Assembly (NCBI RefSeq): GCF_009730915.1
Contig: NC_052475.1
Coordinates: 30,627,016 to 30,691,015 of the forward strand
DNA length: 64,000 bases
Reading direction: 5' to 3'
DNA from: Dioscorea cayenensis subsp. rotundata
Taxonomy: Eukaryota > Streptophyta > Magnoliopsida > Dioscoreales > Dioscoreaceae
Under the pieces are notes generated by a model, which worked only from the letters and a program-made list of their open reading frames with translations, did not search any database and had not been told where the DNA came from. Position numbers and translations under genes: made by a program. Numbering within the stretch: the stretch's first letter is position 1; each line of letters begins with the position of its first letter. This document shows positions 19,190 through 61,955 of the stretch, in pieces.

Positions 19190-19344
19190 AGCATCAACCT
19201 GAAGAAATGAATATATATATATATATATATACATCCTTGGCAATGTATTGGATCCTTATATTGTTCACAGTACCAATCCAATGTATTTGTTCATTCAGAT
19301 TTAGATTTTGTCTGTAAATGAATATATATTCCTTTTAAAGAAAA

Positions 19345-21816
19345 GCGTCAAATAAAATGTGTTGCAACTTTCTTCCAAAAATATTGGTCCATCGTAGAAA
19401 GTGACATTCTCAATCTTTGTGCTAGATTTTACGATAGAACGGCTAACCTGGAAAGAATCAATTGGGCGAGCATTATGCTAATTCCTAAACTTGATAACCT
19501 GGAAAGCCCAAGTGATTTTCGGCCAATTAGTCTTATAAATTCTGTTCTTAAAATCCTCTCCAAAATTTTGGCAAATAGACTAAGCAAGATCATCGACTCT
19601 ATCATTGATCATTCCCAATCCGTTTTCATCAAAGGAAGATGCATTCTTGACAACATCATGGCGGCGGGAGAGCTCATCTTTAGCCTACAAAAGCGACGCA
19701 TCAAAAGACATATAGTTAAAGTTGACTTTGCTAAAGCTTTCGACATGGTAAATTGGGAATTTTTAGTGGAACTTATGCATGTTTATGGTTTTGGATCAAA
19801 GTGGATTGGGTGGGTCAAAGCAATTCTCCTGTCCTCAAAAGCTAACTTTATTATAAATGGAGAACATAATGGATATGTTAGATACCTTCGTGGGCTGAGA
19901 CAGGGAGATCCACTTTCACCCCTTTTCTTTGCCCTAGTTACTGACGTCCTAAGCCTTATGTTCAATCATGCTTTGAACTCAGGGATTTTGTATGGAGTAC
20001 CTATCGGGAATTGGGGCAAAATGTGCAATTTACAATACGCAGATGACCTGCTAATCGTGATAGCAGGCGGTGTTGAGGACTTGAGAATCATTAAACTCAT
20101 TATGTTGCTTTTTCAAGGCATGTCTGAGCTAGCGGTCAACTTCCATAAAACATGTTTATTTGAATCCTCAGGTATTCAATTACCTGATGACCATCTAGCA
20201 AGGACACTCAACTGTACAAGGGGTACTCTCCCGGCATTTTACCTCGGTGTGCCTATCTCTGGCAAAAGACCTCGTAGGCAAGACTGGGAGATTCTAATTG
20301 CAAAAATTCATTCTAAATTAACTTCTTGGAAATCCAAGCTTTTATCTCTAGGTGGACGACTAACACTCGTCAACTCTGTTCTTTCTGCCGTCCCAACCTA
20401 TTGGATGTCCATTTTTAGACTTCCCTCTTGGGTTATCAAAGCTATTGATAGGATTATGAGGGATTTCCTTTGGTCAGGTGCAGAAATTGATAAACCTAAG
20501 ATGCGTTTAGTCAGTTGGAATCGTATCTGCAGACCCAGAGAACATGGGGGTTGGGGAATTCTAAATTTAGATGACTTCAATCTTGCACTCTTAGGGAAAT
20601 GGTGGTGGAAATTTACCACCGGAGTACCTTGGTGTGGAAGAGAGATAATTCTTTATAATTATTTTCAAAATTCCCCGCTTTGGAATCTCAATAATCGCCC
20701 CCCACAAAGAAGGTCGTTTATCTGGAATGGCCTCTTACAATGTCTTCCTGCCTTTAGAAATTGTATTTCTTCAATTGTACACAATGGGGACTCCACTCTT
20801 TTTTGGCTCGATAAATGGGTGGAGAATTGTGCGCCAATGTTACTTTGGCCAGAGCAGTTCATCCTCTCCAATCGCCCCTTTGATACAGTTCAAAATCTGG
20901 CTCATTTATTACAATCTCCTTGCTTCGTAGAAGGGACTCACTCTACAATTGGGCTCTTAAGTAGCAGTGTCCCAAACACACATGGTTTGAGAGATAGCAA
21001 AAAGTTGAGTCTTACGGCAAATGGAAGATACACAGTCAAATCGTTCTACGGTTTTCTTAGACACGGGGGGGGTCATGTGTAAGACCACCAATTTGATTTG
21101 GAAGAGTCCTTGTCCAAAAAAAATTTGTGTGTTTAGTTGGCTAGCTTGGGACAATAGTATCCTCACTCTAGATAAGCTGGCAGCACGAGGATGTAACAGA
21201 CTCCCCACTGCGACATGTGTTATGTGTAACGCAAGCATTGAAACTGTTGATCACTTATTCTTTTCCTGCCCATTTGCCACGATTATCTGGAATTCTCTCA
21301 TTCCAATTTTTTTATTACCGTCACCTCCACAGTCGGTTCATGCTCTTTGGGGATCTTGGAGGCCCAAACTCTCTTCTCATGTGAAAGATGCGGGGGACCT
21401 CATTATCCTTGCTTTAATGTGGAACATTTGGCTAGAAAGAAATCTTCGCATTTTTAGGGAAAGAAATGCTCGCATTTAATGTAAATCTGTATTATGCAAA
21501 TGTATTCATATGTTTCTACTTTGGTTGAATGCAGTACCAGATAAAAAGAAGCCAAGATTGGAGGATTCAGCTGTGTCTGCTAAACGCAGCCTGGACTTCC
21601 TGAATGACCAGCCAGGATCCGGCGAAGAAGACAAAGCTGAGTAGTCAGTGATTTTTTTGACCCTAACCTTTGGGTGGGTTAGGGGTCTTGTTATGTTATT
21701 TTGTTTCGACCCTGTTATCTTTTACTTTGTTTTTGCTTCACTTCTAGTGGATATTGTTTGGACTTATTTTCAGTTAATGCATGTGGTTTATCCACTTTTT
21801 CAAAAAAAAAAAAAAG
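19345..21816 (+). mobile_element. L1-type LINE, 5' truncated
   Basis: Non-LTR retrotransposon in the same direction as the shikimate kinase. The 5' end is cut inside ORF2 (first readable residues FFQKYWS near 19365), so ORF1 and the endonuclease are missing. Reverse transcriptase motifs are clear: SDFRPISLINS, FIKGRCILDN, VDFAKAFDMVNW, GLRQGDPLSPLFF and the catalytic YADD (20037-20048). A zinc-finger RVT region follows (WKSPCPKKICVFSW, LPTATCVMCNASIETVDHLF). One frame change at the G8 run 21065-21072 separates it from the RT frame. A second C-terminal stretch ends KRSLDFLNDQPGSGEEDKAE and TAG near 21643. The element ends with GTGGTTTATCCACTTTTTC and a poly-A of about 14. Target duplications were not identified with confidence. 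Confidence 0.95.
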
Positions 21817-32700: not shown

Positions 32701-34485
32701 GTCTCACACGTCCACTGAAAAGGGATCCCATATTCCCATGTGCACGGCCCACTCCTGATCCAATCCAAGGTATCAAATCTAAGAAGCCATATATCTTCTT
32801 CTTTAACTTTCTTATTGTATATATCTGGAGATGTTGGTTCTTTGTTTGTTAACACGTGTGGGTGATGTCTGTTGGCATGGCAGTTTGCCACGTGCATTCA
32901 AAGGGACACGTAGAGGATGTATTGAGCTTTGTTTTGGGTGATGCCATGCATGCATACACGTAATGTAGGGGATATAGATCCACATGGCAGGTTGTTAGTT
33001 TTGATCATCTAAATGTATATATGCATACATATTCTCTCTTATTTTATTCCAAGGTCCAAACATATATATGAACGTCAAGTTCGCTTATGTGAGCCATGGT
33101 TAGTATGTGGGGGCTTTGCCAAACTTTGATGAAGAGAAGATTCGTTAGAGATATTATAAGTTTGTGAACCCTTAAATGAAGAACGTTGTTGGGCTGTAAA
33201 TTCTGGTGAGTCCTTCCAGCTAGACTTCCTTCTAGATCTTCTCTTCAACTTGAAATGCATGTCATGATTAATTCAATAGAATTTTGTTTAGATGTTTAGT
33301 CCATCCGCTTGTTTGTTGTGACATTAAAAAAAAAGAAAGAAGTGCTTTATTGATCTGTCAAGATATTATATGATTAATTAATTCATTTATTGGTTCTGCA
33401 ATCATCATTCATATTCATTTATTTGGTAATTAATGAATTATTCTCCTTGTACCTTTTTTTTCCCATTAATTTCCTAGTTTCTTGTGATGCCCATGGTTTT
33501 GATCTCAATAACTATGCGTACACGCACACAGCGGCACAGACACATATATACTTTTGCTGAGGAAAAATCAAACTCCCAGCTTTACTTTGTAATATATAAT
33601 GTACCATACACATTATATATATATATATTATATAATATGCTTTAGTGTTTTATGAGCATAGATCATAAAATCTCTGGATGCCATTTTAATTTATGCGCAC
33701 TAAATTTCTCTCTTTTATTTCAAAGTAAAATGATTTCCACCTGTGTCATCTATAATGAACAAGATTCTAAACTATAACAAATCTTTGTGGGGTTACCTTT
33801 GTTTTGTTTATATGAGAAGGCATATAAATAAACACTTTCATTTTCTTTTGTTTCTATTTTCCCTTGGCTATTTTATAGAAGAATAAAAAATTTTCCCTAG
33901 CTCGCTTTTTTTTCTTCTTCTCTCTTTTCTCTTTTATGGTATTTAATTATTTATTAAATGTGCTGTTGAACCGTCCTTTTCTCTCTGATTAATTTTTCTT
34001 TTCTTTTCTTTCCTTTTCGTTTTTATTAGGACGAGATTAATCATACCATTTCTTTTCACTTTATTTGATAACAAGAATGGTTAAAAAAAATCAAATGAAA
34101 CATAATGCATTATATATTTATATATATATATCAAACTGCTTTAAAAACACATCACGTACATACGTCCAAGAAACAAATACATGACATCTCTTACATGCAC
34201 CCGATCCACTTGAACATCCCTTATTAATTAAGAGCGGTACTGCTCTATTTAACAAAGAAAATCACTGATCACATGATCCACATCCAACAAGCATTATATC
34301 ATAAGATTCACAACCGAGCTTGAACATGAAAACACAAAGGAAAAAATGTACATATACAAAGCAAGGTAGTATTATAATAATCACACACAAACAAACCAGA
34401 CTTATAGAGAAACCCATCTGATTAATTTCCTCAACACCACTCTATATAGGAACTTGAGTCTGTTCTCCCATGGAGCAAATGCCTT
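32701..34485. other. Intergenic region
   Basis: No supportable gene. AT-rich with pyrimidine-rich runs (33900-34020) and (TA)n tracts. Confidence 0.5.
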
Positions 34486-34915
34486 TCAGTTGGTTTGAGG
34501 AGGAGGTCCATGAGACGGCTTTGCCATGTCACTCTGCTTCACAGTTGTTATTGATATCCCTCGGCTCTGCTTAAGTATATATAGATATAGATTAAAAATG
34601 AGAAATCAAGAGACAAAGAACAGAAGATGCAGTAGCATTCAATTAATACCTGAACATGAGCATGACTCATTTTGTGGTTATCTCCACCACCTGATCAAGT
34701 TCATATATGTAATTAAAGAGGAAAATTATGAACAAGATGAGAATAATAATTAAGTAGAGAACTGATGCACATATATATATATATATAGATACTATTAATT
34801 AAGCCATGCATGCATGTATATCACCTTTGTCTTTAGAGTTAGTGTTGTTAACACCCTTGACAAGATCAAAGAAGTTGAAGAACTTGTTTTTGAGCTGCTG
34901 GATGAGCTTGGCCAT
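34486..34915 (-). CDS. Small three-exon gene, candidate Pep-like peptide precursor
   Basis: Exons on the minus strand: 34915-34825, 34690-34650, 34566-34486. All borders are GT-AG and the phases close exactly, giving 70 residues; such agreement in small exons supports a real gene. The N-terminus MAKLIQQLKNKFFNFFDLVK could form an amphipathic helix; there is no signal peptide. The middle is polar and His-rich (GGGDNHKMSHAHVQ). The C-terminus reads KQSDMAKPSHGPPPQTN. This design (helix, polar linker, conserved basic-to-proline end) is that of PROPEP proteins, and GPPPQxN is close to the end of the tomato Pep peptide as I recall it (GSGPPPQNN). It also loosely recalls RGF/GOLVEN ends but lacks the sulfated Asp-Tyr and a signal peptide. 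An in-frame upstream ATG at 34984 would add 23 residues. Function is inferred only. Confidence 0.5.
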
Positions 34916-34984
34916 GAAAGAAGTTGATGCTCTTCTTTTTTTTCTTTTGATTTGAGTCTCAGTGAAGGTCAGTGTGGGGAACAA

Positions 34985-36619
34985 GAGCTTAGTAAGGAGT
35001 GCTTTTCATAATATATAAAAAAAATATAAAGTTGTGAAATGGATGCTTATAGTTTGTTATTCAAATAAATACATAAACAAATCAATTGTTTTGACGATCT
35101 GGAAAACTGGATCATGTCATGGGACACCACAAGTTTACCAAACATGAATATAATTAATTCAACTATAGATACATTATCTTTGCATCTGCAAATTACTATC
35201 AATCTTTTAAGTCAAATGTATTTTAAGTAAAAATATAAAAGCTTGAATAAGGTCTGAAAGATTGACTTCGTAGCTAGAATAATTAATTTTGTACATGTAC
35301 CAACAAATTACTAAGACTTGGAATAGTCTTTGGTCTTTTCCGGTCTTTTATTTTTTGTATATTTTATTGGAAAATTATAACGTTGATCAAGTAAAAGAAA
35401 TTAATTTTTGATATATCATTAAAAAAGTTCGTGATGATATATAAAATTACATATGTCTAAAATAATGTTGTTTTTGCACATAAGATTCAACAAAAAAAAA
35501 AAATGAAAATTTGTAAATCATCACGTACTTTGGTCTCAATATATTGCTTCTCTATTAATATTGTTATTGATATATATATCAATAACATAATGGAAAAAAT
35601 GGTATTTTGAGAAAAAAGAAAAGTTGATTCCTCATCGGAAGGAGGTTTTTTATTTATTTATTTTTACGGAGAAATATGTACAACCAACATGTAAGTGTAT
35701 ATGTATAAATTTGATATACACACTATATATATAGAAGGTATATTATCAAATATCAAGATTTTGATTTATAAATTGAGAATGAATATGAAGTCCCACTTCA
35801 CCAATTAAACACTTGAAATATATGTTTATATATATATAATTAACTGACTGACTTCTTCTTCCATTGACTCATACATCCAGCAGTGCATTCATACGAAGAT
35901 TGAGATGGTCAACACGTACTAATGCCTGTGTGTTTTGACCTTTCAACCAGCAATGAATTTGTCTGGTTTCTATGTTTGTCCAATGGGTGCCAAACTAAAC
36001 TTCTAATCAAACTAAATAAACAATTTCCTTCCCGTGCCTCTATTTGGTTTGATTAACATTTAACACTCATAAATCTAATGAAAGAGAAGAAAAAGAAGAT
36101 AAAAGAGAGAATTTATATACATATATATGTATATATACATCCTTATTATTTTAGTCACTGATATCCATAAACAAAGACATGCCATCAGAGTAAGCACATG
36201 CAGTGAGACTCCTTGTTCTTTGATATTCTATTGAGTACCTTAGTCTGTGTCTTAGTCTGACCATATGCTTGTGGTGTGCTGTGAGAGTTGTTGATCTTGA
36301 AATTCCAATGCCAAAATGATTCCATTTCCATCCTATGCATGTATGACCTTTTCCTTTTGTCATCTCTTCGGTCTTCACCTTTACCAAAAAAATTTAAGAA
36401 ACATATATAATTAATTAAGCTAATTAATTACATAAATTAATCTTCTTATTAATGTGTATGTACTTGATAATTGTATCAGCCTAGAAAAGTTCAAATCTGC
36501 CAAATTTATGACTTTTCTTAGTAGTAAATTTTAGTTGATCCATCTTATTAATTGGGGTTATAAAAATATATGGTTTGGTGATATTTATGGCCATGAGAAG
36601 GAGTCCAAGAACTTGCTAC
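34985..36619. promoter_or_regulatory. Shared upstream region of the two divergent small-peptide genes
   Basis: About 1.9 kb separates the two start codons. On the minus side a TATATA run lies at 35012-35017. No coding sequence is supported between them; a minus-strand open stretch at 36151-36387 was considered and rejected. Confidence 0.4.
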
Positions 36620-36834
36620 TATAAATACTGCTGGCTATAAGTGATGAAGATCTCTCAAGGCCAAGGTGCATTCAAGAAAGAGAAAGAGATCACATTATAA
36701 AGATTGATAATTAAGGTTAGTGTTAATTACTTTTTATATCTAATTATTTAATTATATATATAGTTATATCCTAACATAGATTGAGTTTCTTCATATATTC
36801 AAAGAGTTTCTTCATGTTCTTTTATTCTTCATAG
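36620..36834 (+). promoter_or_regulatory. TATA box and probable 5'UTR intron of the PROPEP-like gene
   Basis: TATAAATA at 36620-36627 is well placed for a start near 36650. The leader seems to contain an intron, donor AAG/GTTAGT at 36716 and acceptor CTTCATAG ending 36834, five bases before the ATG. Confidence 0.5.
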
Positions 36835-36839
36835 AAAAG

Positions 36840-37197
36840 ATGGAGGAAGATAATGGTAAGAAAGAAGTGGAAGATGGATCTTCAGTTAGTGGAGGGAGTG
36901 GCTTTTGTGATCCATGCTCTTGGATGAACTTCTTTATAACTTCTTTTCTCAGCTGTTTTGGCCTGTTGGATCATCACAATGATTCTAAGGACCTTGAAAT
37001 TGGAGCAAGAAATATTAATGTTAGTACTCTTTCTTTCTCTTTACCTTTATGTGTGTGTATATATATATATATCTTTTTGGTTTGATGGTATATATATATA
37101 CATGATTTTGATTCAGGCAATGATGGTAACAAGAAAAAGGCCAACTAAGCCTCCACCAAGCCCAGGAAGTGGTGGGAAAATCAACAAAGTTCTTTAA
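36840..37197 (+). CDS. PROPEP-like precursor of a Pep danger peptide
   Basis: Two coding exons, 36840-37019 and 37117-37197, phase 0, giving 86 residues. The N-terminus is acidic, then SWMNFFITSFLSCFGLL forms a hydrophobic/amphipathic segment as in Arabidopsis PROPEP1, with no typical signal peptide. The second exon ends TRKRPTKPPPSPGSGGKINK followed by VL. Monocot Peps have a basic, proline-rich stretch and a GSGGxxN core (maize Pep3: TRTPPWPPCPP then EEGSGGNGGSHN, from memory), which fits well. In known cases the precursor is stored inside the cell, cut by metacaspases on damage, and the C-terminal peptide is sensed by PEPR receptors with SERK co-receptors. Odd points: Lys-Val-Leu extends past the usual terminal Asn, and an exon joint separates the helix from the peptide. 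Good fit but not proven. Confidence 0.65.
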
Positions 37198-38248
37198 TCA
37201 ACTTGAAGAACAAATTAATAGTGTGGTTTGATGGTTTTGTGAATGGTGTTTTGTAGTTTGTGCTCTTTTTGGGAGGATTAGTAGATGAATTAAAGTAGAT
37301 TTAATTAATTGCATGTAAACTCAAGTCTCTGGTTTGGTTTTCCTTAATTTGTTGGCCTCCTGTTTCTCCTTCCTGTAATACTTGGCTTGAAAATAAGTTT
37401 CAAGTTTTTCCTTTATTTTTATACATGGAGTTCCATTAATGGTGATGAGTATGCATAATTAAGATAAGTGTATGGAGAGTCCTGAAAGGTTGGACTTGAT
37501 TGATGTGTTTATGAATGTGAAAGGTTGTACAAAAACAAAAGGGAAGATTCGTATCATGTCTTTTCTTTTCTATTTCAATCATTTGTGTTTGCAGATCAGA
37601 GTTTAAGTGAAGACACTAGAAGTAATTTCATTCTGGTTATCATTAATTAGGTTAGGCTATACAAAAGTAATTATTAATTTAAATATATGATATAGATTTA
37701 CTTGTCATTTATGTTTTATCCAAGTTAAAAAAGTGAAGTTTGTTTTTGTACTTCTACTCACAGAGATAATATTCAAAACTCATCCATGAGTATATATATA
37801 TATATATATATATATATTCATCAATTTTGCTGTCAATGTTGTGAGTTGGAGGTGGAAAGGCCTCCCTTAAATCAAACTTTTTTAATTGTCGGTTGTTTCA
37901 CTGACAAAGGAAGTACCGGAGAGGAAGAAGGGAAAAAAGAAAAAGTTTTGATGTAATCTTTCAATTATAAAAATATTAAATCAAAAAGTTTTGATCATCA
38001 GCTATATATATTGGTTGCCCCTACTTGTTAGCTGCAATTATTTAATTTTTAAACTCTCAATAATAGTTTTTACTTTTTATAAATATAAACATAACTTAGT
38101 AGAGATATTAATTAGTTAAACAAAAGTACATGGAAATACAAAACAAATGGTTATAATAAATTACATGAACAATTTTTTTAAAGAAAAGTGATATAATATT
38201 TATTTTCTATTAGTTAGGTAAGAGTCGCTTAATTTTTAATTTAAATGA
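37198..38248. other. 3'UTR and intergenic DNA
   Basis: The PROPEP-like 3'UTR probably extends to about 37440. The rest is AT-rich with a (TA)n tract at 37791-37816 and no recognisable gene. Confidence 0.5.
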
Positions 38249-38585
38249 TAAAAAGTGGATAAACCACATTCATTAAAAGGCAAAGAACCCACACAAAATA
38301 CAGCAAAACAAGTCTCAAGACCCACCAGAAGTGGGAGAAACCAATACAAAGCTACAGAAAAGAAAAAAAAATACAAGAAAAGGAGGCCCCAACACGACAG
38401 GCCTCAACAGCCAACAACCACCATCGCTAAACTTCTCCCGGTGATGAGGTATGCTCCGGAGGGTCATTGGGTTCCACCTCCCTAGCCGAAACGAATTCCA
38501 GGCTCCGCTTGATTTTCTTCGTAGGCTCCTCCAACTTTGCCTATTTAGCTTCAGGACTGCATTCCTCCAACTTTTTTAAAATTTT
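38249..38585 (-). mobile_element. LINE 3' end, truncated, minus strand
   Basis: The minus strand reads KKIKRSLEFVSAREVEPNDP and ends SSPGEV with TAG at 38429-38427, then about 180 bp of 3'UTR ending GTGGTTTATCCACTTTTT at 38249. The peptide block (KRSLEF) matches KRSLDF of the LINE at 21541-21645 and the terminal GTGGTTTATCCACTTTTT is the same. Only the last few hundred bases were inserted, typical of 5'-truncated LINEs. Confidence 0.75.
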
Positions 38586-39929: not shown

Positions 39930-40397
39930 TCATAGCATCGAAGATGAAGGAAATGCATTCGATTGGCGAAAACTCTGCAAAATGGTGGCGATAGTCATTG
40001 AATCATCGTCATCACCATCAACCAAATGACCATGATCTTCACCAATCTCCAAGTTATACCCAGAGCAATATTCCTTCTCCTCCTCCGAAGGAGAAGGTGG
40101 CGGAGGCGGCGGTGGAGGAGGTGGAGAAGGCATAGTAAGAAATGGATAGTAAAAATTAGTTTGAGCTCTACCGATGCCACTAAAGGTGATCGACGACATA
40201 TCATAAACTAATGCTGCTTCCTCCGCCGTATCAAATGTGCCTAACCAGTGTCTCTCCTTAGTATAAGGGTTTCTAATCTCCGCCGCATAACGCCCCCATG
40301 GTCTCCGCCGTACTCCTAAGTACTCCGTCGATGCTCTAGACCGTCTTCTCCTGTGACGAGGAAGGATCATGCATTGTAAGTGATCAGCCATGTCCAT
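39930..40397 (-). CDS. ERF transcription factor, AP2 domain (LEP/DRN-type group VIII)
   Basis: Single exon, 155 residues, first ATG at 40397-40395. A basic stretch [11 protein letters not shown] precedes one AP2/ERF domain (about 24-83): [40 protein letters not shown]. The Ala and Asp positions are those of the ERF, not DREB, subfamily, so a GCC-box-like target is expected. A proline run of about ten residues follows and then an acidic segment ([16 protein letters not shown]) that may activate transcription. The domain resembles the LEAFY PETIOLE / DORNROSCHEN / FRIZZY PANICLE branch, which controls meristem and organ outgrowth, but its end ([17 protein letters not shown]) departs from the usual AARSMRGxRARTNF. 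Orthology is therefore open. A TTAGGGTTT telo-box lies at 40498-40506, upstream of the start. Confidence 0.9.
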
Positions 40398-41881
40398 ATA
40401 TAGGTGCAATGATAATTGTTGCAAAGAGTGTTCAATATCCTATCTCTATATATAGTTACATGCAACAATATATATATAGTCTGGAGAAAGAGTTGCATTA
40501 GGGTTTGGTAGAGTAATTTGTAGGTGTTATCAAAGTGATGAAACACGTTGGTTTGGGAGTAGTCTAATTAAATAGGTAGGCTAAGTGGAAAGGTTAGGGA
40601 GGGGAGTAGCACTTTTTTATTTGGGCAGGTGAGATGAAGGAGGGCGTTGTTTATTAATTAGAGAAAGACAATGAGGAAGGTGTTGTAATTTGTTTCTGAA
40701 AGTGGTTGGTTAAATGGCTTCTTTTTTCCTTGTTTTCCTCGACATGATAAGACATTAATGGCCATTTTCCGCAATTCACTGAGTTCCATTATGCTTTGGT
40801 ACTTGCCTTTATATATATTATATATATAATTGAATCACTTCATGAACTTGAAGAATTTTGGAGTTTAATTGCATGTGTAGATTTACATATATATATATAT
40901 ATATAATTATATATAGTGTCAAACAAGATATTCATTTAGTTTACTGATCTATCTTGGACTGTTTACTTATAATACATCTTGATATGTTAGTCAATCTTTA
41001 TTATCGAAAATATTGATTGTATGTTACTTGATTGATTGATTCTCTATAATTAAAATTAAGAAGGAAGATCAAGTTTATAAACTTAGTTTCTTTTGTCAAG
41101 CATGACCTCAAATTCTTCCACAAAATAATTAATAAAATAGAGAGTGAGAATAATTGTTATCTAGCACAAAAAATAGATGAATGTCATTTCTTGTTTAAGA
41201 GACAAATGAATCTCACTTTGTATTAATTATAAAAGTGTGTGATTTGTGCCAATTGAAGTGTATAGAAAGTTTGTATGAAGATCACAATTTAAAAAGTATC
41301 TTAAGAAAAATAGTTGGATACATATATAGTCATGAAACATTAATTATATAAGGAATTATTTAGAAACATATATAGTGTTGCATATAATTGAATCCATTTT
41401 TTCAGTAAACTCTTGTTGATTATGCTCAAATCAAATGTTACAATCAAAGGAGTTTTATTCCATTGTCTTATCAAACCAGAAAAGAAGATAAAAAGTTGTC
41501 CCACTGATATGTCTATGCTATAATTAAATAAATTAATGGAGTACTTCATTAAGTTTAGAATTCATTAAAATAAATGAAGATAATACTTTGAAGAAGTGGG
41601 GAGCATACTTCTCTTCAAATGAGGATAGGAAAACTTTATACTATAGATGGAAACAGTTATATATTTTTCTTAAACCCTTCATCTTATGTACTTCCAAATG
41701 GCTGAAGATACATTCAGTGAACTTATAAAATTTTTTGCACCCCGCTCACAATACAAAAAGTATTATATTTAATACTTGATTTTGTCCATTCTCTCTCACT
41801 CTTTTCCTCTTTATTTTAAACAATCATTCAATATATATATATATAGACTGTCCAACATGGTGCTTTTCTTTATGTTGACAG
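40398..41881. other. ERF upstream region and spacer
   Basis: Contains the ERF promoter, with a telo-box at 40498-40506 about 100 bp before the ATG, and AT-rich DNA with (TA)n tracts. No other gene supported. Confidence 0.5.
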
Positions 41882-43076: not shown

Positions 43077-43625
43077 CTACCACTGAACTCCTCCATTAAC
43101 ATGACTGGAAAAAGCTCCACCACCATTTGCACTTCCACCTCCATGAAAACCACCAAACCCTAAAAGTTTACCATTCATGGTTCCACCCTCATCAGTACTA
43201 CTACTACCTTGCTTTGCCGGCATCGAGCTTTTATCATCTTCGGTCTCTCTATACTTATTGAGATATATCTTAAGAGGGGCAACATAGTTATCAAAACCAA
43301 GTGCTGTCATGGCAGAGAGAAGGTCATCTCCGTTGATGGTCTTCCTCTTTTCTCTCTGGCACTTGTCAGAGGCCTCGCCGGTGATGAAGCTTATGAACTC
43401 CGACACGCACTCCTGCACCGTCTCCTTGGCTTCTTTGGAGATCTTTGCGTTGGCAGGGAGGGACTTCTTCATGATTCTGCTCACGTTGGCTATGGGGAGG
43501 AAGCAGTCTTGCTCTTTGGAAGAGGTGGCTCCGCCGCCGGCTCCGCCGCCGGAGTCTGCGTCCGATGGAGGGCTGTTGGCAGGGCTCATGAGCTGATCAT
43601 GCTGGTGGTTCTTCCTTCCTTTCAT
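43077..43625 (-). CDS. NF-YB subunit of the CCAAT-binding factor
   Basis: Intronless, 182 residues, start ATG 43625-43623. The histone-fold core (about 38-128) is plain: [60 protein letters not shown], then [14 protein letters not shown]. The N-terminus is Ser/Gly-rich and the C-terminus Gly-rich. NF-YB pairs with NF-YC in the cytosol or nucleus, recruits NF-YA and binds CCAAT; some plant forms pair with CONSTANS-type proteins in flowering. It is of the common, not the LEC1, type, since it has Lys in SKEAK where LEC1 has the special Asp. Two positions are unusual: Cys41 where the family has Arg (QDRFLP) and Ser104 where the family has Trp (LLWAM). A telo-box (AAACCCTAAA) at 43653-43662 lies 28 bp upstream. 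Confidence 0.95.
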
Positions 43626-44654
43626 GGTGGAGATGGTGAGAGAGTTGAGGACTTTAGGGTTTGGTTTTATAGGTTAGAACTTAGAAGAACAAATTTAAGA
43701 AGATGGTGGGAAGAGTAGTGCAAGTGGAAAGACTGTTTTGATAAAACATAAAGTAAATTAATTATTTATATTTACCTCTTAATAAATTAACTTAAATAAA
43801 GAAATGAAAACTCAATTATATATTTAATAAATGAAGTAAATAATAAATTTTTTTATTATTTTTTTGTCTCTTGTTTTTCCCAATTAGTGTGATATATATA
43901 TACATATATAGAGCTCTAATTATAAGAAGATTTGAATATTGATTAAAGAAAAAAAAAGTAATATTTTGCTAAGATTCTCCTCCAATCACATCATGAAAAA
44001 AGGAATATATCACGCCGAAGGATGCAATTAAAGCCATTAACAATAGTTATTAAATTATAAATTTTGCCAATTAATTAATGAAAGAAATTTAAGGGATACT
44101 CAACATATATGGTTGTGCCAAATGTCTACAGTATGAACTAATATCATTTCATAAACACTTAAATGACCATTAATATATGTCTTCTCACTAGATTAAATGC
44201 AACTAAAATATAAATAGATGGTGATGTTGATCAAATAGGCATGAGTTATAATGACATGGATGGACTTGTTTATAGTTGTAGGTCAAATTAAGGGTTTGTG
44301 TGATCTTGCCTCAAGAGACATGTTCAAGTTTGGGAATGATTAAGCTTAAAAAAATAAATTATAAAAAGGGTGACTAATTAAAAGATAATGACAAGAAGCC
44401 AAAAGAAAGAAAAATTGATACCCAAAGACCATGCCATGTTTTGATGCCATGAACCTCCACATAGAGACACTAGATGCCCTATTTATTTATTTATTTATTT
44501 ATTATTTTTTGAGTATCTCATTGAGTTGGTATAACTTAAGTGTGTGTATCTTTATATATTGGAAAGGAACAATCGTATTTTTAATCTTACATTTACTTCT
44601 ACTGCATCTATTCTTATTAAAATTTATCATGTGTTAATTAATTGGTGCTCTGCA
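43626..44654. other. NF-YB upstream region
   Basis: Promoter of NF-YB with a telo-box at 43653-43662, then AT-rich DNA; (TTTA)n at 44480-44503. No other gene supported. Confidence 0.5.
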
Positions 44655-50400: not shown

Positions 50401-52266
50401 AAGTGGTGCACCATTCTGTGTTATTTTCCTCCTCAAACCATGTATTGTAATATGTTTCACTCACAATATACGTAATTGCTAAACTGCTATATGCTGTTTC
50501 TTATGCCTGTTAATGTTATTCTGACAGGAAGTAGTCCCTCCAGTACTGGAGCAATTGCTGGTGGGGTTGCTGCAGGTGCCGCCTTGCTTTTTGCTGCACC
50601 TGCAATTGGGTTTGCATGGTGGCGCCGCCGCAAACCACAAGAACTTTTCTTTGATGTGCCTGGTTAGTGATATTGGCTCATTAGTAAAATTTTCAGGTGG
50701 ACAACATAAGTCATGGGTTGCATTTGTCTTCTACAGCTGAAGAGGATCCAGAAGTTCATCTTGGCCAGTTGAAAAGATTTTCTTTACGAGAACTGCAAGT
50801 TGCTACTGATACTTTTAGCAATAAAAACATCTTGGGCAGAGGTGGTTTTGGAAAGGTGTACAAAGGACGACTTGCAGATGGTTCCTTAGTGGCTGTAAAG
50901 AGACTGAAGGAAGAGCGGACACCTGGTGGTGAGCTTCAATTTCAAACAGAAGTAGAAATGATTAGCATGGCTGTGCATCGAAATCTGCTTCGTCTTCGTG
51001 GTTTTTGCATGACACCCACTGAACGTCTGCTTGTTTATCCCTACATGGCTAATGGAAGTGTTGCATCATGCCTGAGAGGTACCCATTTCCCTCATTATAA
51101 CTGTAGCAGGAAGAATCATACCTTAAAAACTGTGGGGTCATTTATCTATTTTTAGAACTTATTCTCAACTAGCAACTAGTATTTCTCAATTTTTCATTTC
51201 AGGAGAAATTAATTTTCTTGGGTAGTAAGTTTGCTTTCTCATGTATGTTTATTAATGCTTTTGTTGATCTTCCCCTAGAGCGTCCTCCATCTGAACCACC
51301 TCTTGACTGGTCAACTCGAAGAAGAATTGCATTAGGGTCTGCAAGGGGGCTATCTTACTTGCACGATCATTGTGATCCAAAGATCATTCATCGAGATGTC
51401 AAAGCTGCTAACATTTTATTAGATGAGGAATTTGAGGCAGTCGTTGGGGACTTTGGTCTGGCCAAACTTATGGACTACAAGGATACCCATGTGACAACGG
51501 CTGTCCGAGGAACAATTGGGCACATTGCGCCAGAGTATCTATCCACAGGAAAATCTTCAGAGAAGACTGATGTTTTTGGCTATGGAATCATGCTTCTGGA
51601 GCTGATTACTGGACAACGAGCATTTGATCTTGCTCGGCTTGCAAATGATGATGATGTCATGTTGCTTGATTGGGTAAGCATCATTTTCTTAGAATACTCT
51701 TTCCTGCATCATTTCATTATATAACTAGGCATGGTTATAATAAAAGCGCCAAACTAAGACGAAGTTTAACAGCTGTTTAGTCCTGCTTGCAGTCTTTGTG
51801 ATATGGTGTGTAATGTGTACATTTTTCTTACTTGGTGTCCAATGTTTGTGGGGATCCATCCATGAGTTGTCAGAATATTCAGAAGGAAGACTTTTTTTGG
51901 GCATTGTCAAATTCCTTTTTCCGCTTAATTTAATCTACTTGCTCTTCTCAGGTGAAAGGACTTCTCAAAGAGAAAAGGTTAGAAATGTTGGTTGATCCAG
52001 ATCTACAGGATAACTACGTAGAAGCTGAGGTTGAATCACTCATCCAAGTGGCCCTACTTTGCACCCAGGGCTCCCCAATGGAACGGCCAAAAATGTCTGA
52101 GGTGGTGAGGATGCTTGAAGGAGATGGTCTCGCAGAGCGATGGGAGGAATGGCAAAAGGTAGAAGTGGTTCGCCACGAAGTGGAGATGGCCCCACACCGC
52201 AGCTCCGAATGGATCCTAGATTCAACAGATAACCTCCATGCAGTTGAATTGTCAGGGCCAAGATGA
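47244..52266 (+). CDS. SERK: SERK-type LRR receptor kinase (SERK1/2-like)
   Basis: Complete gene with the classical eleven exons: 47244-47334, 48232-48364, 48462-48533, 49265-49408, 49738-49809, 49924-49995, 50076-50188, 50528-50662, 50737-51078, 51279-51673, 51952-52266; 627 residues. Order: signal peptide (1-30), LRR N-cap with CTWFHVTC, five LRRs on exons of 72 or 144 bp, the Ser-Pro-Pro hinge (PPFSPPPPF, about 205-236), one membrane segment (about 240-263), kinase with GRGGFG (311-316), Lys332, HRD (429-431, RD type) and DFG (448-450), and the tail ending [11 protein letters not shown], a SERK1/2 mark. SERKs are plasma-membrane co-receptors for brassinosteroid, peptide-hormone and immune receptors and act in embryogenesis and male fertility. 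All key residues are present. Start ATG 47244 is the first in frame; 47265 and 47268 are alternatives. Intron 1 carries a long (TTA)n tract. Confidence 0.97.
47391..47456. repeat. (TTA)n microsatellite in SERK intron 1
   Basis: About 22 perfect ATT units starting 57 bp after the exon 1 donor; likely length-polymorphic. Confidence 0.95.
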
Positions 52267-60662: not shown

Positions 60663-60842
60663 GAGGCCCGAGCCCGAACCCGACGAATAGCTTCTCCTCG
60701 GCGAGCAGTCAAGTCAAAATGAGGAGAAGAAGCTTATATAATTAAAGGTATGGCAATGGTTAACGGGTCGGATCTATTATACTAAACCCGAATCCGACCT
60801 GTTTATAACCCTAACACGTGTGAGAGAATCCGTTAAGCTGTG
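60663..60842. promoter_or_regulatory. Short bidirectional promoter between CAF-like and mTERF genes
   Basis: Only 180 bp separate the two start codons. It holds a telo-box AACCCTAA at 60807-60814 directly joined to a G-box CACGTG (60815-60820), a GGCCC element near the CAF start (60666-60670) and a TATATAA run at 60736-60742. Telo-box plus GGCCC (site II-like) elements are common at nuclear genes for organelle proteins. Confidence 0.6.
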
Positions 60843-61955
60843 ATGTTTCCCAAGCTCTCGTTCCGGCGCGGCTTCGCCGCCGCGACGGCGGCGGCGGAAG
60901 CGAAAGCGAAAGCTAAAGCTCGAAACACTAATTTCATGGCGGAATACCTCGTCTCCACCCTCGGGTTCTCCACAGTGGAAGCGGCGAAGGCCTCCAAATC
61001 TATCTCCCACCTGAAATCCCCTCAAAGACCCGATTCCATTGTTTCATTTTTCAAATCTCATGGTTTCGATCAATCCCAGATCAAAAAGCTCGTGTCTTGG
61101 CATCCCCGTTGGCTCTGCTTTGATCTCCACAAAACCCTAACCCCAAAGTTCCAGGCGTTCAAGGACTTCGGCTTCTCCGATGGCGATATCGTTCACCTCA
61201 TTACGTCCAACCCTGGAGCTCTCCACCTCAGCCTAGAGGGCAATCTACTTCCGAAGTTGAAGTTTTGGAGGGATTTCTTGGGTTCTGGGGAGTATCTGAT
61301 GACGCTGGTGAAGCGAGGGAACTGGATGATGACGACGAGCTTGACGAATGTGGTGATTCCCAATCTCACCTTTCTTCGAGAATGTGGCGTCTCCGACGAG
61401 CGTATCGTCATGGTTGTCTGCAAAACTCCAAGGTTCATCTTGCAGAAGAGGGAGAAGCTGGAGACGGCTGTGGAGCTCGTTGATTGCACCGGCGTACCCC
61501 GGAGGTCAGGGTTGTTCCTATGGGCTATCTGGGCTGTGTACTTAGCTGGAAAAGCCAAGTTCTATGCGAAGCTTGAGATGATGAAGAGCTTTGGATGGTC
61601 AGAAGCTGATTTCTTCATGGCATTCCGTAGGGCTCCGGTTTTCATTCTGGTTTCAGAGAAGATGGTGAGGGAAAAGATGAAGTTTTTATTAAAGGATGTG
61701 GGTTGTGAGAGTTCCTACGTTGTTGAGCATCCTGATCTCTTGATGTATAGTTTGGAGAAGAGGTTGCTTCCTCGGTATAGAGTAGTGGAGATTCTCAAGT
61801 CCAGAGGATTGCGCAGGAGAGACTATGACTTCCGGACGGTAATGTGCCGGTCGGAGAAGTATTTCTTGGAGAAGATTGTGTTGCGGAACATTGATAAAGT
61901 CCCTGAGCTTCACCAAGTGTACAATTGTGGAATCTGTTCTGGATTTGCTGTTTGA
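60843..61955 (+). CDS. mTERF family protein, organelle-targeted
   Basis: Intronless, 370 residues, from ATG 60843. The N-terminus (MFPKLSFRRGFAAATAAAEA) is basic, Ala-rich and lacks acids at first, as in a mitochondrial presequence. Repeated ~30-residue mTERF helices follow, each with a hydrophobic Pro-containing core: SFFKSHGFDQSQIKKLVSWH, AFKDFGFSDGDIVHLITSNP, FLRECGVSDERIVMVVCKTP, MMKSFGWSEADFFMAFRRAP and CESSYVVEHPDLLMYSLEKR. The C-terminal end, LHQVYNCGICSGFAV, is short. Plant mTERFs bind organelle DNA or RNA and act in transcription, termination or intron splicing. This is a member of the large intronless mitochondrial clade; its target is unknown. No disruption seen. Confidence 0.93.
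   Translation: MFPKLSFRRGFAAATAAAEAKAKAKARNTNFMAEYLVSTLGFSTVEAAKASKSISHLKSPQRPDSIVSFFKSHGFDQSQIKKLVSWHPRWLCFDLHKTLTPKFQAFKDFGFSDGDIVHLITSNPGALHLSLEGNLLPKLKFWRDFLGSGEYLMTLVKRGNWMMTTSLTNVVIPNLTFLRECGVSDERIVMVVCKTPRFILQKREKLETAVELVDCTGVPRRSGLFLWAIWAVYLAGKAKFYAKLEMMKSFGWSEADFFMAFRRAPVFILVSEKMVREKMKFLLKDVGCESSYVVEHPDLLMYSLEKRLLPRYRVVEILKSRGLRRRDYDFRTVMCRSEKYFLEKIVLRNIDKVPELHQVYNCGICSGFAV

What the first reader, a model, noticed from the sequence alone, without database searches (positions are those of the whole stretch)
34486..37197. Head-to-head pair of small peptide-precursor-like genes
The minus-strand gene at 34486-34915 has the same layout as the PROPEP-like gene: no signal peptide, short amphipathic helix, polar linker, basic/proline C-terminus. 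Its end SHGPPPQTN resembles Solanaceae Pep ends (GSGPPPQNN, recalled), while its neighbour has the monocot-type GSGG core. PROPEP genes cluster in Arabidopsis, so this may be one locus making two very different Pep-type signals, one of them an undescribed type in this lineage.
Basis: inference. Interest (0 to 1): 0.75.

Follow-up and report, generated by a model that had tools for sequence, protein, structure and literature searches.

The report
Probable second yam danger-peptide precursor gene
Next to a recognisable plant danger-signal (Pep) precursor gene in what looks like a yam genome lies a second small gene whose predicted protein ends like the Pep signals of Arabidopsis and potato, which suggests that this non-grass monocot makes two kinds of Pep from one locus; this is a prediction from sequence that has not been tested in the plant.

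Summary
The described pair is there. The minus-strand gene (three exons, 70 aa) has GT/AG introns, GC-richer exons than introns, no signal-like hydrophobic stretch, and ends KPSHGPPPQTN. That fits the literature Pep motif SxGxxxxxN and adds P19 and Q21. It matches the AtPep2 core at 10 of 23 positions (0 of 20,000 shuffles); SxGxPxQxN before a stop is expected 0.0026 times per 64 kb. The neighbour is a PROPEP by Pfam (PF17232, over cut-off); the minus gene has no Pfam match.

The neighbour is not grass-type: without its last three residues it aligns with AtPep3 (11 of 23) and pear Pep6 (10 of 23), and a second PROPEP 1.96 Mb away is built alike. The minus peptide is barely basic (net +1).

The genome fits a yam (dioscorin-like genes, 584 Mb), a non-grass monocot; the one review table I read lists monocot Peps in grasses only. 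PEPR-like sequences exist: three scaffold copies carry in-frame stops, and a more distant one on C4 has an open frame.

Best reading: a divergent, proline-type PROPEP (0.6). Expression, processing, receptor binding and homologues in other species are untested.

The parts
34825..34915 (-). Minus gene, exon 1 (91 bp): MAKLIQQLKNKFFNFFDLVKGVNNTNSKDK and the first base of the next codon; amphipathic segment
   Evidence: open frame, donor GTGATA, GC 0.396; moment of residues 3-20 reached by 2% of shuffles
34691..34824 (-). Minus gene, intron 1 (GT..AG)
   Evidence: GC 0.254
34650..34690 (-). Minus gene, exon 2 (41 bp, polar linker)
   Evidence: AG before, GTATTA after; GC 0.439
34567..34649 (-). 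Minus gene, intron 2 (GT..AG), phase 0
   Evidence: GC 0.277
34486..34566 (-). Minus gene, exon 3 (26 codons and TGA) holding the predicted Pep
   Evidence: GC 0.494, reached by 1.6% of same-size stretches of 33500-38500
34489..34560 (-). Predicted mature peptide GISITTVKQSDMAKPSHGPPPQTN (residues 47-70, after R46)
   Evidence: inferred from the Arg that leaves 24 residues to the end; core 34489-34515 found by motif scan
34916..36839 (.). Shared divergent intergenic region with 5 W-box cores (35210, 35262, 35864, 35907, 35935)
   Evidence: weak (6.4% of same-size stretches of the window have 5 or more)
36840..37019 (+). Neighbour PROPEP, exon 1 (60 codons)
   Evidence: PF17232 Pep1_7 match of the spliced protein over residues 8-79, 30.2 bits, cut-off 26.2
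37020..37116 (+). Neighbour PROPEP, intron, phase 0
   Evidence: GC 0.247
37117..37197 (+). Neighbour PROPEP, exon 2 (26 codons and TAA): AMMVTRKRPTKPPPSPGSGGKIN + tail KVL

Best explanation
The minus-strand gene is a divergent, proline-type PROPEP. It makes a 70-residue precursor without a signal peptide; an amphipathic N-terminal helix probably holds it at a membrane (inferred). On wounding, a protease, probably a metacaspase, cuts after R46 and frees a peptide of about 24 residues ending in SHGPPPQTN (inferred). The free terminal Asn with S15, G17, P19 and Q21 would be read by a PEPR-type LRR receptor kinase with a BAK1-type co-receptor and would raise immune signalling (inferred). With its head-to-head neighbour, a PROPEP of the SxGxGGxxN type, it forms a two-signal Pep locus in a non-grass monocot. 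Shown: gene structure on the DNA, motif, alignment statistics, the neighbour's family, PEPR-like sequences in the genome. Not shown: expression, processing, binding, activity.
For: S15, G17 and N23 are reported critical for AtPep1, and P19, Q21 and H22 for the contact with BAK1 (PMC4526913); the peptide has S, G, P, Q, T, N at 15, 17, 19, 21, 22, 23. Last 23 residues against the AtPep2 core: 10 identical, 0 of 20,000 shuffles reach the score; AtPep1 8 (5 of 20,000); StPep1 7 (3 of 20,000) (letters from PMC4304247 and PMC12734062). S.G.P.Q.N-stop in any frame: 3 in 72.6 Mb simulated, 0.0026 per 64 kb, against 1 here. Both pair members end in an 81-bp last exon after a phase-0 intron. Neighbour over the Pfam Pep1_7 cut-off. 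No signal-like stretch, amphipathic segment. PEPR-like sequences in the genome.
Against: No Pfam match at E up to 10. 0 of 5 grass Peps match over 23 residues (p 0.14-0.62). Last 23 residues only +1. No homologue found: single copy in its own genome, none in viral contigs, so conservation of the C-terminus is untested. SxGxxxxxN-stop alone is expected 1.0-1.5 times per 64 kb, so the case rests on P19, Q21 and the extended similarity, to peptides that I chose after seeing the end. The source of the motif also says that S15, G17 and N23 may not be needed for Pep activity in general. From the core Asn, the last intron is 26, 23 and about 30 codons back in the three yam genes, so the equal exon size of the pair may be coincidence. 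The amphipathic helix is not shared by the other two yam PROPEPs by the same measure. The three closest PEPR-like copies have in-frame stops.
Confidence: 0.6

Rival explanations
1. A real small gene of an undescribed family, unrelated to PROPEP; its Pep-like end is convergent and its function (for example membrane binding through the helix) is something else.
For: No Pfam match, three coding exons where the neighbour has two, low charge of the C-terminal peptide and an amphipathic N-terminus unlike the neighbour's, no similarity to PROPEP N-termini shown.
Against: Five literature-defined Pep positions met, extended similarity to AtPep2, StPep1 and AtPep1, and a Pfam-recognised PROPEP as the adjacent gene.
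Confidence: 0.22
2. A peptide of another C-terminal class (CLE, IDA and the like) that ends in Asn and is read by another LRR receptor kinase.
For: GPxPxxN resembles CLE ends (recalled, not tested against a profile).
Against: No signal-like stretch, no Pfam match; the AtPep2 match extends beyond the shared GPxPxxN.
Confidence: 0.07
3. Not a functional gene: a chance open frame or a decayed PROPEP copy.
For: No transcript evidence, single copy, no homologues available.
Against: Intact frame over three exons and GT/AG introns, exon/intron GC contrast, TATA-like box, ATGGC start context (by eye).
Confidence: 0.11

Closest known systems
AtPROPEP2/AtPep2 (Arabidopsis)
   Same: 8 of the last 12 and 10 of 23 residues of the core up to its Asn
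   Different: AtPep2 as synthesised has a further tail after that Asn and a strongly basic N-terminal half; the yam peptide has neither
StPep1 (potato)
   Same: GPPPQ-N end, proline-type core, 7 of 23
   Different: StPep1 has Gly at position 15 and several Arg; the yam peptide has Ser15 and two Lys
AtPep3 and pear PdrPep6 (for the neighbour)
   Same: SxGxGGxxN core, 11 and 10 of 23
   Different: the yam neighbour and the second yam PROPEP carry tails KVL and STHDQ
Grass Peps (ZmPep1, OsPep1/2/3/7)
   Same: neighbour's GSGG letters; with its tail the neighbour does match ZmPep1 (8 of 23, p about 0.001)
   Different: no significant match to the minus peptide over 23 residues; the neighbour scores higher in the dicot-like register

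Membership tests
PROPEP/Pep | C-terminal SxGxxxxxN (S15, G17, N23; shown for Arabidopsis, not required in general) | tested here: met
   SHGPPPQTN before the stop; motif and its limits from PMC4526913. By itself expected 1.0-1.5 times per 64 kb
PROPEP/Pep | P19 and Q21 (BAK1 contact in AtPep1) | tested here: met
   both present; source; S.G.P.Q.N-stop 0.0026 expected per 64 kb
PROPEP/Pep | H22 (BAK1 contact in AtPep1) | tested here: not met
   Thr at 22; AtPep2 also has Thr there, so not taken as defining
PROPEP/Pep | Similarity of the last 23 residues to known Peps beyond composition | tested here: met
   3 of 9 known Peps at p below 0.001 (AtPep1, AtPep2, StPep1), AtPep3 0.04, 5 of 5 grass Peps above 0.1; pear Peps 0.004 and 0.011
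PROPEP/Pep | Match to Pfam PF17232 (Pep1_7) | tested here: not met
   0 families at E up to 10 for the minus protein; neighbour 30.2 bits over 26.2. Not taken as defining, since many PROPEPs share under 10% identity (PMC4526913)
PROPEP/Pep | No signal peptide; small precursor | tested here: met
   70 aa, maximum 12-residue hydropathy 0.72; hydropathy only, no dedicated predictor
PROPEP/Pep | Basic peptide region (typical, not universal: OsPep3, active in PMC9055822, has one Arg against two acidic residues) | tested here: inconclusive
   net charge +1; OsPep3 letters and activity
PROPEP/Pep | Cleavage site for release of a peptide of about 23 aa | tested here: inconclusive
   R46 leaves 24 residues; cleavage after Arg/Lys is recalled, release by metacaspases is in PMC9055822
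PROPEP/Pep | Perception by PEPR and induction by wounding | not testable with these tools
   PEPR-like sequences present; no expression or binding data
CLE and similar secreted peptides | N-terminal signal peptide | tested here: not met
   (hydropathy only)
CLE and similar secreted peptides | CLE 12-residue motif | not tested
   resemblance GPxPxxN is recalled only; no Pfam family matched

The most novel reading that the evidence does not exclude
Two Pep sub-lineages, a proline type (GPPPQxN, GRPGQxN) and a Gly-Gly type (SxGxGGxxN), go back to before the monocot-eudicot split and survive head to head in yam, while grasses lost the first and re-shaped the second. Each type would have its own tuning of PEPR, so one shared promoter region would set the ratio of two danger signals.
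Probability: 0.2. Interest if true: 0.7.

Novelty: new member of a known kind. Interest (0 to 1): 0.45.

Why it matters
In the review table I read (PMC11756074) the monocot Peps listed come from six species, all grasses, and grass Peps look so unlike Arabidopsis Peps that their homology was once doubted (PMC4526913). A non-grass monocot with both a proline-type and a Gly-Gly-type end would suggest that the dicot-like cores are older than the grass form, and gives peptides that can be tested at once in a staple tuber crop.

Tried and rejected
Grass-type register for the neighbour: with its tail it scores 24 (8 identities) against ZmPep1 and 27 (7) against pear Pep6; without the tail 52 (11) against AtPep3 and 45 (10) against pear Pep6. 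The register was chosen after seeing the sequence; the second PROPEP supports it, although read to its last residue that one scores 30 (8 identities, p 0.002) against OsPep1. W-boxes: 5 in 1,924 bp, reached by 6.4% of same-size stretches; the three-in-100-bp cluster had a 24% chance somewhere in the window; not used as support. Weak hits L007 to the minus protein (E 0.88) and L010 and L011 to PF17232 (18 and 16.9 bits, under the cut-off): no Pep core seen by eye in the frames shown; dropped. These genome searches go exon by exon, so further PROPEPs may be missed; the window's own neighbour scored only 19 bits that way. A partner beside the second PROPEP: no Pep-type end other than its own in 9.9 kb (L014). 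Viral contigs: 17 pattern stretches, none confirmed; genome contigs (prokaryotes) was not tried. PDB search with the minus protein and with AtPep1: no hits. Literature: 0 papers hold any of five strings of the yam peptides; 25 papers hold both 'propep' and 'dioscorea', of which 15 were listed and none of those titles is on plant Peps; searches listed no title on Peps of non-grass monocots (20 of 816, 20 of 168 and 12 of 265 papers listed). Papers: of PMC4526913 the abstract, passages, and sections 13 and 18 whole; of PMC11289955 passages and section 5 part 1 of 2; passages only of PMC5782389, PMC4304247, PMC9055822, PMC12734062, PMC8952307, PMC13148170, PMC11756074 and PMC5604175; other papers as search listings only. 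Tang et al. 2015 is not held, so the structure is cited through PMC4526913.

Full report
Where it lies. The window is G000:C5:30627016-30691015 of a genome of 584,211,761 bases in 2,249 contigs. Of contig numbers 1 to 20, sixteen appeared in my outputs with positions of 2 Mb or more, while C27 is only 121 kb; this fits 20 chromosomes but I did not see all twenty. White Guinea yam has 20 chromosomes and 570-594 Mb (PMC5604175). An independent check: 12 of 31 alpha-carbonic-anhydrase matches lie at C14:1.23-1.57 Mb, and the two exons from there that I tested match dioscorin, a yam storage protein, far better than any other solved chain (86 against 41 bits, 69 against 37 bits). I therefore treat the plant as Dioscorea, a monocot outside the grasses (lineage); the species is inferred.

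The gene pair. On the minus strand, exons 34915-34825, 34690-34650 and 34566-34486 join to a 70-codon frame. Both introns are GT..AG; exon GC is 0.40, 0.44 and 0.49 against 0.25 and 0.28 in the introns. On the plus strand, exons 36840-37019 and 37117-37197 give an 86-residue protein that passes the Pfam cut-off for Pep1_7. Both last exons are 81 bp and follow a phase-0 intron.

The end of the minus protein. The motif SxGxxxxxN is held critical for Arabidopsis Peps, and P19, Q21 and H22 for the co-receptor; the same paper says that S15, G17 and N23 may not be needed for Pep activity in general (PMC4526913). The yam end SHGPPPQTN has S, G, P, Q and N in those places, with Thr at 22 as in AtPep2. 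SxGxxxxxN before a stop is not rare by itself (1.0-1.5 per 64 kb), but with P and Q it is (0.0026 per 64 kb). Over 23 residues it matches AtPep2 at 10, AtPep1 at 8 and StPep1 at 7 positions; 0, 5 and 3 of 20,000 shuffles do as well. AtPep3 is marginal (p 0.04), and 5 of 5 grass Peps do not match (p 0.14-0.62). The pear Peps lie between (p 0.004 and 0.011). The peptides compared were chosen after the end had been seen. An alignment of nine Pep cores needs no gap over the last 23 columns and has G17 and N23 invariant; but I chose and trimmed its rows and left the five grass Peps out, so the invariant Asn follows partly from that choice.

The neighbour is not grass-type. Read to its last residue, its best scores are 27 (pear Pep6) and 24 (ZmPep1). 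Read to the Asn before KVL it scores 52 with AtPep3 (11 of 23) and 45 with pear Pep6 (10 of 23); 0 of 5,000 shuffles reach either. A second PROPEP 1.96 Mb away on the same contig (31.3 bits for Pep1_7) ends PGRGGQIN plus STHDQ; read to its Asn it scores 48, 46 and 37 with AtPep2, AtPep3 and pear Pep6 (0 of 5,000 each), read to its last residue 30 with OsPep1 (p 0.002). AtPep2 as synthesised also carries a tail. So both genes of the pair follow one register, with a proline core in one and a Gly-Gly core in the other.

Points against. The minus protein matches no Pfam family, its peptide is only +1 in charge, and its amphipathic N-terminus is not matched by the two other yam PROPEPs by the same measure. 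No homologue turned up in its own genome or in the one other collection tried. OsPep3, active in PMC9055822 and with two acidic residues against one Arg, shows that a basic peptide is not needed. The last intron lies 26, 23 and about 30 codons before the core Asn in the three yam genes (the last by eye), so the equal exon size of the pair is suggestive only.

Receptor side. AtPEPR1's ectodomain has 117 matches at E 1e-20 or less, most of them surely other LRR kinases; I fetched and read five places. Three unplaced scaffolds (C404, C27, C1187) hold near relatives of each other at 38-51% identity by stretch, each with in-frame stops or frame breaks. A tandem pair on C4 is at 37-41%, and its first copy has an open frame of 1,104 codons. 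The second-ranked match, C1124 (35%, open frame), was not typed. For a C404 fragment and for the first C4 copy, PEPR1 is the highest-scoring solved chain with a single collinear stretch; GSO1 has a higher summed score without one. The letters RRxILR of AtPEPR1 are kept in the three scaffold copies and read RRFTLK in the first C4 copy; no match to the pattern in the second. That this stretch reads the peptide's end is recalled, not tested. Which of these is a working Pep receptor is open.

Verdict. A divergent proline-type PROPEP is the best explanation (0.6). It is a new member of a known kind, of interest because the review table I read lists monocot Peps in grasses only (PMC11756074).

Noticed in passing
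window 50688-51724 (+): Kinase exons of a SERK/BAK1-like receptor kinase (first piece: PDB BAK1, E 4e-69; second piece: Pfam kinase), the co-receptor class of PEPR, about 13 kb from the Pep pair; probably coincidence.
   Followed up: partly
L014 (C5:28699000-28708900), gene on the minus strand near C5:28703791: A second yam PROPEP over the Pfam cut-off, ending PGRGGQIN + STHDQ; its full exon set was not worked out.
   Followed up: partly
L024, L027, L028 (C404, C27, C1187): Three closely alike PEPR-like copies on unplaced scaffolds, each with in-frame stops or frame breaks.
   Followed up: partly
G000:C14:1234598-1567443 and G000:C801:14849-28438: Clusters of alpha-carbonic-anhydrase (dioscorin-like) exons, 12 and 5 of 31 matches; some matches run over stops.
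   Followed up: partly
window 19322-21082 (+); 39930-40439 (-); 43077-43673 (-); 60837-61955 (+): Reverse transcriptase (RVT_1), AP2, NF-YB-type and mTERF domains.
   Followed up: no
window 36716-36833 (+): A possible intron in the 5' UTR of the neighbour PROPEP (GC 0.195; GT..AG by eye).
   Followed up: no
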